Assembly: GCA_017562135.1 (NCBI GenBank)
Contig: QEYB01000150.1
Location: 62,001 to 126,000 of the forward strand
Length of the DNA: 64,000 nucleotides
DNA from: Dipylidium caninum
Lineage: Eukaryota; Platyhelminthes; Cestoda; Cyclophyllidea; Dipylidiidae
Direction: 5' to 3'
Shown here: positions 52,701 through 58,084 of the stretch, piece by piece
Position numbering within the stretch: the stretch's first letter is position 1
How the letters are laid out: the number at the start of each line of letters is the position of its first letter
Program-made: the position numbers and the translations under genes
The notes under the pieces: generated by a model
Databases searched by the model: none
Told to the model about the DNA's origin: nothing
What the model saw: the letters and a program-made list of their open reading frames with translations, nothing else

Positions 52701-55700
52701 GTAGTGGGAGGACTGGAGTGCCGTGAATCTGAACGTGGTAAGAGCCACAAAGGCAGGGATTTGCTTCACCGCACATTAACACTCACCCAGTAATGACAAC
52801 AGTGAAGTCGAGGATGTTCCACACGTTGCGCAGATAGGCCTCCGGGTGAAAAACGAACCCCAGAGCTATTATCTTCAGAATGGCCTCACAGGTAAAGATG
52901 CCAAGGAAATAATTTTCCAGGAATTCCTAAAGTGATATTTTTCAAAAACGCATGTTGGATAATTTGTTCTGGTGTGTTTTTCAGAGTTCTCTAACAATAT
53001 TTGCTCCCTACTTCCATTTTCCTTCCTATTCTTCTGATCATCGTTTTTATTGCCCCCCTCCACACAGCAGACTGTACCCTCTTCTGCGTTTCAAGGCCCT
53101 ACAGACGGCTACTTTAACCTCTCGGGCTACAAATCTGCTGGGACAAAATCATTCTGATTTCTCCAGTCCGGATATCGAGCTCTAATAGTGTCGAGATATT
53201 GTTTGACAATGTTAAAACCCAAAAGGGAAATTTTTAAATGTGCTTATCCATTATCTTACGCATATTTTTTGACTAAACGCCAACCTCTCCAGCGAAAGGC
53301 ACAAATTGCACCTTCAGGCGCATCACTTTACGGTATGGTCGGAAAATTTGACTTGCTGGAAGTTCAGAGGAGGTTCGCTGTGTTACACGAAGGTCCTTGC
53401 AAATTGTGACTAATGTGTAGAATATCGCCGTACCATAAACTCTTCAAGCAATAGCTTTTTATTCACGAATAACGGTGGGAATTAAACAATTTTCAGTTTG
53501 AACAGCTAGGAAGATTTCGCGCAAACAAGATTTATAAGAGCCTTTATAAAGAGGCATTTCGTGTGTTTAAATCCTCGGCGTTACGCTCATCCTCTACAAC
53601 TACGACAGTAAGAAAATACTGACAGGTAAGCACAGGTGTACGAGTTTTTACAGTCGAGAGGATAAATGAAAACCGTCTCTCCTTTGTTTTGTCAGATTAG
53701 CTAAAGCGATCTTTTGTGGCAAAATTCTTACTTGTCCTCCTGACAAAAGGACATTTCTGTAGTAAAGCGCATACATAAATATGCGTTATGAGGAGATGGA
53801 TAAATTTCTCTCGAGTTTCCTATCATTTGTCTTCGGGCTAGTTTGAGAGCTTCATTTACTTCCGCGCTCCTAACCGAATGCGTGTATTCGCACAAGAACC
53901 ACATTTTTTAAATCTTCTCCCCTCAAGACCATTTCATCTGTCAGCTCTAACCAATACTGACAGAAAATTAAGCTGTCACAAGCAATAATTGTGGTTAATT
54001 AAGGAAAAGGACGACTTGCCCAACAGATATAATGCGAATAAAGAGATCATTTGTCGCTGAGTCTCAAAAATTTCCTAAAACCGTTATTATATCACAGTGG
54101 ACGTTGGAGTATAAGTGTAAACATCCCTATTTTGACTCGACTCTCACAGTCGTAAATGAATCACGCTTCCACCACTTATCAGCACGCCAAACTCCCATGG
54201 ACCGCATGATTTATTACCGGGGGTGTAAGGGATGTTTCCATTGATTTCACTGTTTATTTAATAATTTTTAGTTTGAAGTGAAATCTCAAAGATAACCAAA
54301 CCTTTTATGAGACAACTGCTGTTTTACTCGTCTTCTGCAACTTATGAGCAAATTGAAAGCCTTTTAAAGTTGTCCACTCTGTGGAGTGAGACAAAGTTTT
54401 AAACGGGGGACATACTCAGCATTACTTCCCATAGTGGAAGTGGAAAAAGGTGTTAGGTAGTTAGGTTGTCGCCAACCAGTAAAATATTCGGGATTTAATG
54501 GCTTATTACAAAGAAAAGATAAGGCTACAAGAACAGAGGTTTCCCTAATGCAATTTCTCCTCCACACGTAACATGGTGACAATTTTCCAACCCAATTTAT
54601 AAAATTTTTCGAATAATGGAACCATCGTCTTACCATTCTTGTAAACAGAGGTCGACGGTCATTGTTGGGCAGGTGGACTTCCATGGCAAGAAACACACAG
54701 TTCGCCGTAATTGTGCATAAAACCAGATATTCGAATGGTGTACAAGCATTAAGGGAAACAAAGTCAGGAGAAATGCAATATATAATATGGTTCCTTAAAC
54801 TACTTATATTCTGCAAGTAGCATTCCGCCGCTTTAACAACAATGAAATGGCATGTTGATGTATCTTACATAAGAAGGATCTGCGTATACAGGTCGTAAAT
54901 CCTCTGGGTTCTTGCATAATTTATATTTTATATGTCATTACATTAAGACTAAGAACTATTATTATGTCTCATTAATTTCCACATATATCCAGAAGTGTTA
55001 AGCCCTGTAATTATCTATCGTATCTCAAATTCATCACAACCCTTCTGTGTTATTTATTCAAAGCCAAAATTTTAATTACGTAGGCAGTGTACATTGAAAG
55101 TAAAGAGAATAATACGTATGACGCCTGCCATATGAGAGAATTTGCATAAGACATCGACAGCCCGAAGCGTATCTTTCATCTGACCTTGTACTTTGAGCAC
55201 ATCTTATAAATTGACTTAATAGGTTAATATTTGCCAAGTTTGCTATTTACCTCCTCAGATCACCGTAGATCAAAGGAACCCGATTGGAGTGATCATTGTG
55301 ATGGAGAAAACCCAATCATCACTGATCGGACATTACAAACAGCTATAAAAGTAAGTCGCATTGCTAATTGTGAGTTTAGAACTATTGGGCGTTTTCAAAG
55401 CATTTTCGAGGAAACAAAACAAACAAAAATTGCAGAAATTTGGTGGAAGTAAACATCCCTCGTGCACCGAACTCTTTAGGTCAGGTAGAGGAGGAACATG
55501 AGCGAATGTTGCTTTCGGAAGTGAAGTGATAGAGGCGAAAGGGCAATTTATGGAGGCTGGTCCAAGACTAAAGAAGCGGAAATGGAGCCGTCTCTGCCCG
55601 CATTATTTTCGTCACGGGTATGGGGATTTGTGAGGAACGAGATTCCGCTCCCGATATTAAGGAACCAATGGATGCCCAATGGTAATTATTGAAGCTGGCA

Positions 55701-58084: not shown

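What the first reader, a model, noticed from the sequence alone, without database searches (positions are those of the whole stretch)
54740..57758. AT-AC (U12-type) intron in the first coding intron of a flatworm-like Cav2 gene
Seen: the intron starts with the perfect U12 5' site ATATCCTTT, ends AC, has an 8/9 branch-site match nine bases before the end, and its removal gives the expected IS1 junction in phase. Known: minor introns are conserved in voltage-gated sodium and calcium channel genes of other animals. Inference: the minor spliceosome is functional here and the intron was kept although other introns in the window shrank to about 30 nt. A gene predictor limited to GT-AG or GC-AG sites will mis-call this exon.
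Basis: partly seen in the sequence, partly recalled or inferred. Interest (0 to 1): 0.8.

Follow-up and report, generated by a model that had tools for sequence, protein, structure and literature searches.

The report
Minor-spliceosome introns in tapeworm calcium channel
A tapeworm calcium-channel gene keeps an ancient, rare type of intron at the place where other animals have it, and a second one further on; this is ordinary biology, but it helps to explain why published versions of such genes are often cut short.

Summary
On the minus strand, intron 57758..54740 (3019 nt) starts ATATCCTTT, ends AC, has a branch site TCCCTTAAT 8 nt before its end, and joins IIDWG to PFEY in phase 2. The best GT-AG and GC-AG joins score clearly lower. 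The gene is a tapeworm Cav2 alpha1 subunit. Its genome holds U11, U12, U6atac (barely over the cut-off) and a U4atac candidate below the cut-off.

The position is the known IS1 (D1S1) U12 intron of animal Cav and Nav genes (PMC6259924): a new member of a known kind.

Added here:
- A second U12-type intron, GT-AG, lies in IIS6 (39470..37449).
- All five channel genes compared have a U12-type IS1 intron: AT-AC in two Cav2 and one Nav, GT-AG in two Cav1.
- The IIS6 intron is U12-type in one Cav2 and one Cav1, and U2-type in the other Cav2 and Cav1.
- 5 of 16 flatworm protein models read the IS1 junction as predicted; 11 do not.

No RNA was available, so splicing itself is inferred.

The parts
54740..57758 (-). 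AT-AC U12-type intron at IS1 (D1S1), 3019 nt, phase 2
57750..57758 (-). 5' splice site ATATCCTTT, 9/9 to RTATCCTTT
54748..54756 (-). branch site TCCCTTAAT, 8/9 to TTCCTTRAY, followed by GCTTGTAC
57759..58084 (-). exon 1, coding part (end fixed by the join; start is the upstream ATG in the open frame, a guess; ATG at 57934 is the other candidate)
   Evidence: open frame; aligns with E. granulosus P0001 from 58063
54634..54739 (-). exon 2, IS1 (PFEYLVLCTITANCVFLAMEVHLPNNDRRPLFTRM)
39462..39470 (-). its 5' splice site GTATCCTTC, 8/9
37464..37472 (-). its branch site TTCCTTAAT, 9/9, 15 nt before the AG end
27129..58084 (-). Cav2-type alpha1 gene (extent of the protein matches; the ends of the transcript are not known)

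Best explanation
This is the old minor-class (U12-type) intron at segment IS1 of animal Cav and Nav genes, kept with AT-AC ends in a tapeworm Cav2 gene. Inferred mechanism: U11 and then U6atac pair with AUAUCCUUU, U12 pairs with the branch region UCCCUUAAU, and the minor spliceosome removes the intron at AC, joining IIDWG to PFEY in frame. The gene has a second U12-type intron, GT-AG, in IIS6. Shown by sequence: the signals, the frame, the same position in four other channel genes of this genome, and the snRNA loci. Inferred: that the snRNAs are expressed and that splicing takes place.
For: Signals and frame. Of 30 modelled junctions of the gene only IS1 and IIS6 reach 8/9 or more at the 5' site; the other 28 reach at most 6/9. 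U12-type intron at the same place and phase in Cav2B, Cav1A, Cav1B and Nav of the same genome, each 9/9 at the 5' site. U11, U12, U4atac and U6atac candidates, one locus each; the same searches rang in 0 of 14 control genomes. A U11/U12-35K-like exon. Duplex energies of the genome's own snRNAs with the IS1 sites: U12 -7.9, U11 -8.9, U6atac -11.0 kcal/mol, against -1.8, -1.1 and -5.5 for one U2 intron of the gene. Published D1S1 position (PMC6259924).
Against: No RNA evidence. U4atac is below Rfam's cut-off and U6atac only just above; the Sm region of U12 is derived. At the IIS6 5' site U11 pairing is weak (-4.0) and U6atac (-5.3) no better than the control (-5.5). One U2-type intron (III-IV) also has an 8/9 branch-site match. 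Profiles of PDCD7, CCDC84 and zf-SCNM1 found nothing in the genome, though they also rang in no control. In the poor duplicate contig C116 the Cav2B IS1 5' site is not intact.
Confidence: 0.93

Rival explanations
1. The AT-AC intron is removed by the major spliceosome (the AT-AC class with U2-type signals, recalled for a Nav intron), so it says nothing about the minor spliceosome.
For: AT-AC ends alone do not define the class (recalled; the papers on this were not read).
Against: The 5' site is the full U12 consensus and the branch site is 8/9; the Cav1 genes have GT-AG ends with the same U12 signals at this place; the minor snRNA candidates are in the genome.
Confidence: 0.03
2. The junction is not used: the real transcript has another first exon, or joins IS1 through an AG-ended acceptor.
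For: 11 of 16 flatworm models have another N-terminus or start after the junction.
Against: Exon 1 aligns with E. granulosus P0001, and the joined domain I aligns with human Cav2.2 from its first residue, 22 residues before the junction, across its whole length. Five flatworm models read W-G-P-F-E-Y as predicted (P0004, P0008, P0009, P0010, P0016). The best-scoring AG-ended joins insert intron-coded residues.
Confidence: 0.03
3. The motif is a chance match and the gene is a decayed copy.
For: Each motif alone is expected about once (5' site) or some 65 times (branch site) per strand. One junction of the gene, IIS4, has no AG directly before the expected exon start.
Against: Both motifs lie exactly at one conserved junction and recur at this place in four other genes; exons over the whole length match other tapeworms, mostly at 70-100% identity with lower values in linkers and tail.
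Confidence: 0.01

Closest known systems
Conserved U12-type (AT-AC) intron at D1S1 of Nav1, Nav2, Cav1, Cav2 and Cav3 genes (PMC6259924, abstract and passages)
   Same: Channel family, segment (IS1), AT-AC ends in Cav2 and Nav, U12 5' site and branch site
   Different: Here in a tapeworm; in this genome the two Cav1 genes have GT-AG ends at the same place
Two minor introns (2 and 13) of rat Cacna1c (PMC8767276, passages); [quoted passage not shown]
   Same: Two U12-type introns in one Cav gene
   Different: Whether the mammalian second intron lies in IIS6 could not be established here
Minor spliceosomal snRNAs of Schistosoma (PMC2770079, passages)
   Same: The same four minor snRNAs; U4atac and U6atac diverged from known homologues
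   Different: Found here in a tapeworm genome; the U4atac candidate is below the Rfam cut-off
Pan-eukaryotic minor-intron survey (PMC10639083, passages)
   Same: Reports minor introns in Schistosoma; lists Echinococcus multilocularis and Opisthorchis felineus among the species of a figure on minor-intron loss and conversion
   Different: The passages seen do not mention channel genes; the whole paper was not read

Membership tests
U12-type (minor) intron | 5' site RTATCCTTT | tested here: met
   9/9 at IS1, 8/9 at IIS6
U12-type (minor) intron | branch site TTCCTTRAY close to the 3' end | tested here: met
   8/9, 8 nt from the end (IS1); 9/9, 15 nt from the end (IIS6)
U12-type (minor) intron | minor snRNAs present in the genome | tested here: met
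   U12 74.3 bits, U11 71.9, U6atac 33.1 over cut-off; U4atac 45.5 below its cut-off of 53
U12-type (minor) intron | minor-spliceosome-specific proteins | tested here: inconclusive
U12-type (minor) intron | removal depends on U11, U12, U4atac and U6atac | not testable with these tools
   needs RNA and depletion experiments
Conserved D1S1 intron of Cav and Nav genes | same place in IS1 and same phase as in related channel genes | tested here: met
   five of five channel genes compared in this genome, phase 2, before PFEY/PFEF or LFSM; position in other animals taken from PMC6259924
Cav2 (non-L-type) alpha1 subunit | closer to Cav2 than to Cav1, Cav3 or Nav | tested here: met
   domain I: 653 bits Cav2.2, 624 Cav2.1, 593 Cav2.3, 491 Cav1.2, 337 Cav3.3, 278 Nav1.7

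The most novel reading that the evidence does not exclude
Within one tapeworm genome the second U12-type intron of the Cav family (IIS6, phase 1) is U12-type in Cav2A and Cav1A but U2-type in Cav2B and Cav1B at the identical position. The simplest reading is that it was U12-type before Cav1 and Cav2 split and was converted to U2-type twice, independently, while the IS1 intron stayed U12-type in all five channel genes compared. The flatworm Cav family would then be a compact natural experiment on which minor introns may change class.
Probability: 0.5. Interest if true: 0.45.

Novelty: new member of a known kind. Interest (0 to 1): 0.27.

Why it matters
It extends the known IS1 U12 intron to a tapeworm, together with candidates for all four minor snRNAs. 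It gives a concrete cause for missing or garbled N-termini in public flatworm channel models, which matters to anyone cloning or modelling these channels. The five channel genes also show a difference of terminal dinucleotides within the U12 class (AT-AC in Cav2 and Nav, GT-AG in Cav1) and probable change of class at IIS6.

Tried and rejected
GT-AG and GC-AG alternatives at IS1 were enumerated and rejected. Rfam on the whole window at gathering thresholds gave 0 matches. Pfam profiles of PDCD7, CCDC84 and zf-SCNM1 found nothing in the own genome; nothing rang in the 14 control genomes either, so no absence is claimed. Whether rat Cacna1c intron 13 is the IIS6 position was not resolved: Wu and Krainer 1999 is not held and two text searches gave listings without the position. 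C116 looked like a third Cav2; blastn against C296 (89.9% over 15.7 kb with 710 gaps) makes it a haplotig or poor duplicate, so it was left out of the paralogue counts. Result against the pattern: in C116 the IS1 5' site is not intact, while its IIS6 intron is U2-type like that of C296. In the intron model 32 junctions were tried; a further II-III linker junction (36250/34940) was left out. Three gave no join (IS1, solved with corrected anchors; I-II a; IIS5-P), and the joins printed for IIS4, C3 and I-II b are not trusted, though they are among the 30 scored. The peptides printed for the IIS6 junction of C296, C852 and C388 are in the wrong phase of my script; the phase-1 joins were read by eye from the exon ends. 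Channels more distant than Nav (Cav3, NALCN) were not searched for with their own queries.

Full report
What was checked. The minus strand at 58300-54500 was read and the two exons were joined. Exon 1 ends ATC GAC TGG GG; the intron starts ATATCCTTTT at 57758 and ends TTTCCCTTAATGCTTGTAC at 54740; exon 2 starts ACCATTCGAATAT. The join reads ARTIIDWGPFEYLVLCTITANCVFLAMEVHLP, phase 2. Thirty-four in-frame, stop-free joins with AT-AC, GT-AG or GC-AG ends near the two exons were scored against the flatworm Cav2 protein P0010: the proposed join 194, a two-base-shifted AT-AC join 186, best GC-AG 161, best GT-AG 153. The motifs alone are not rare in 64 kb; their coincidence with this junction is what counts. 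The intron is the first coding intron as far as seen; upstream coding exons were not excluded.

What gene it is. A homology search with the window's exon translations returned flatworm Cav proteins at the top. By tblastn, exons match E. granulosus P0001 and H. diminuta P0003, mostly at 70-100% identity with lower values in linkers and the tail; the P0001 matches run from 58063 to 27129. Domain I scores 653 bits with human Cav2.2 and 491 with Cav1.2. The host is therefore a tapeworm; the species was not determined. The genome held for the window has 106.3 Mb in 920 contigs, with the window at C506:62001-126000.

Machinery. The Rfam models of U12 (74.3 bits, cut-off 53), U11 (71.9, cut-off 39), U4atac (45.5, below its cut-off of 53) and U6atac (33.1, cut-off 33) each match one full-length locus of the genome and rang in 0 of 14 control genomes. 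The alignments keep the U11 5' end AAAAAGGGC, the U12 stretch GAGUAAGGAAAAUAAC, the U6atac box AAAGGAGAGA and a U4atac Sm-like site ACUUUUUGG; the Sm region of U12 is derived. Duplex energies with the genome's own snRNAs, against one U2 intron of the gene as control: U12 with the branch regions of IS1 and IIS6 -7.9 and -11.7 against -1.8; U11 with the 5' sites -8.9 and -4.0 against -1.1; U6atac -11.0 and -5.3 against -5.5. So U6atac pairing at IIS6 is no better than the control. Profiles of PDCD7, CCDC84 and zf-SCNM1 found nothing, without a positive control.

A second U12-type intron. Among 30 modelled junctions of the gene, two have 5' sites of 8/9 or better to RTATCCTTT: IS1 (9/9) and IIS6 (8/9, with a 9/9 branch site TTCCTTAAT ending 15 nt before the 3' end). 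The other 28 reach at most 6/9 at the 5' site; one of them (III-IV) has an 8/9 branch-site match. Three of the 30 joins are doubtful and a few junctions were not modelled. The IIS6 intron, 39470..37449, joins FGN to YTLLNVFL. The two U12-type introns are the two longest of the 30 (3019 and 2022 nt), but a U2 intron reaches 1959 nt, so no weight is put on this. The H. diminuta model P0003 reads on past this junction as FGNCILFHLF, which suggests the same GTATCC 5' site there (inference from the protein).

Paralogues. A Cav2 domain-I query (E up to 0.01, 34 matches) hit six contigs: the window gene, a second Cav2 (C296), its poor duplicate (C116, left out), two Cav1 (C852, C388) and one Nav (C55). 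Classes were checked against solved channels: C852 481 bits Cav1.2 against 412 Cav2.2; C388 359 Cav1.3 against 325 Cav2.3; C55 339 Nav1.4 against 217 Cav2.2. The names Cav2A (window), Cav2B, Cav1A (C852) and Cav1B (C388) are mine. At IS1 all five genes have U12-type introns of phase 2 with 9/9 5' sites: Cav2A AT-AC 3019 nt, Cav2B AT-AC 1084 nt, Nav AT-AC 272 nt, Cav1A GT-AG 529 nt, Cav1B GT-AG 1794 nt; branch sites 8, 8, 9, 9 and 8 of 9, ending 8, 22, 19, 7 and 17 nt before the 3' end. The acceptors of the four others were chosen by frame and homology. In the duplicate C116 the IS1 5' site is not intact. At IIS6, for the four Cav genes: Cav2A U12-type; Cav1A U12-type (GTATCCTTT, branch CACCTTAAC 7/9); Cav2B GTAAGTATA and Cav1B GTGAGTTTG, both U2-type. 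Exon ends GGAAATT/ACACTC, GGCAACT/ATATCC and GGGAACT/ACATCC show the same phase 1.

Effect on annotation. Sixteen flatworm proteins, those recognised by name among the 120 listed, were examined at IS1 (P0001-P0014, P0016, P0028). Five read W-G-P-F-E-Y as predicted (P0004, P0008, P0009, P0010, P0016). Eleven do not: they start after the junction, have another N-terminus, or, in E. granulosus P0001, read the 5' site as coding (LIDWGYPFTMTAMLCTITANC). For most of the eleven the AT-AC intron is the likely cause, not a proven one. The sixteen mix two Cav2 paralogues and several species and are cluster representatives, so this is a count of models, not a rate per gene.

What is known. D1S1 as a U12-type AT-AC site in almost all Cav and Nav genes: PMC6259924 (abstract and passages). 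Minor introns in the sodium- and calcium-channel families: PMC6865273 (passages) and PMC2831892 (passages; its table lists U12-type introns in fruit-fly Ca-alpha1D and a T-type channel). Minor snRNAs in schistosomes: PMC2770079 (passages). Survey with minor introns in Schistosoma: PMC10639083 (passages). Rat Cacna1c minor introns 2 and 13, retained when U6atac is knocked down: PMC8767276 (passages). My text searches listed no paper on such introns in a tapeworm channel gene that I recognised from titles and abstracts; most subscription journals are not in that library.

Verdict. Observation confirmed, interpretation supported, nothing categorically new. The added pieces are the second U12-type intron, the comparison of five channel genes in one genome, and examples of mis-annotation.

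Noticed in passing
window about 41661 to 41190 (-), IIS4 intron: The exon end KFT/GTAAAG looks normal, but no AG stands directly before the expected next exon (QYWASLRNL); either a sequencing or assembly flaw or an unusual acceptor.
   Followed up: partly
G000 C55:271001-301000 (L046-L048): This tapeworm genome holds a voltage-gated sodium channel gene (339 bits with Nav1.4), with its own AT-AC IS1 intron of 272 nt.
   Followed up: partly
G000 C116:1-17662 (L038, L039): Short contig that is an indel-rich near-copy of the Cav2B gene on C296 (89.9% over 15.7 kb, 710 gaps); probably a haplotig or poor duplicate, so the assembly has local quality problems.
   Followed up: partly
window 7214..6978 and 4474..4319 (-): Open frames with LIM-domain-like cysteine patterns, judged by eye; no family search was run.
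   Followed up: no
window 61192..61692 (+): Open frame with a glutaredoxin-like stretch (KCIIFAKHNCPYCEKVEALC), judged by eye; no family search was run.
   Followed up: no
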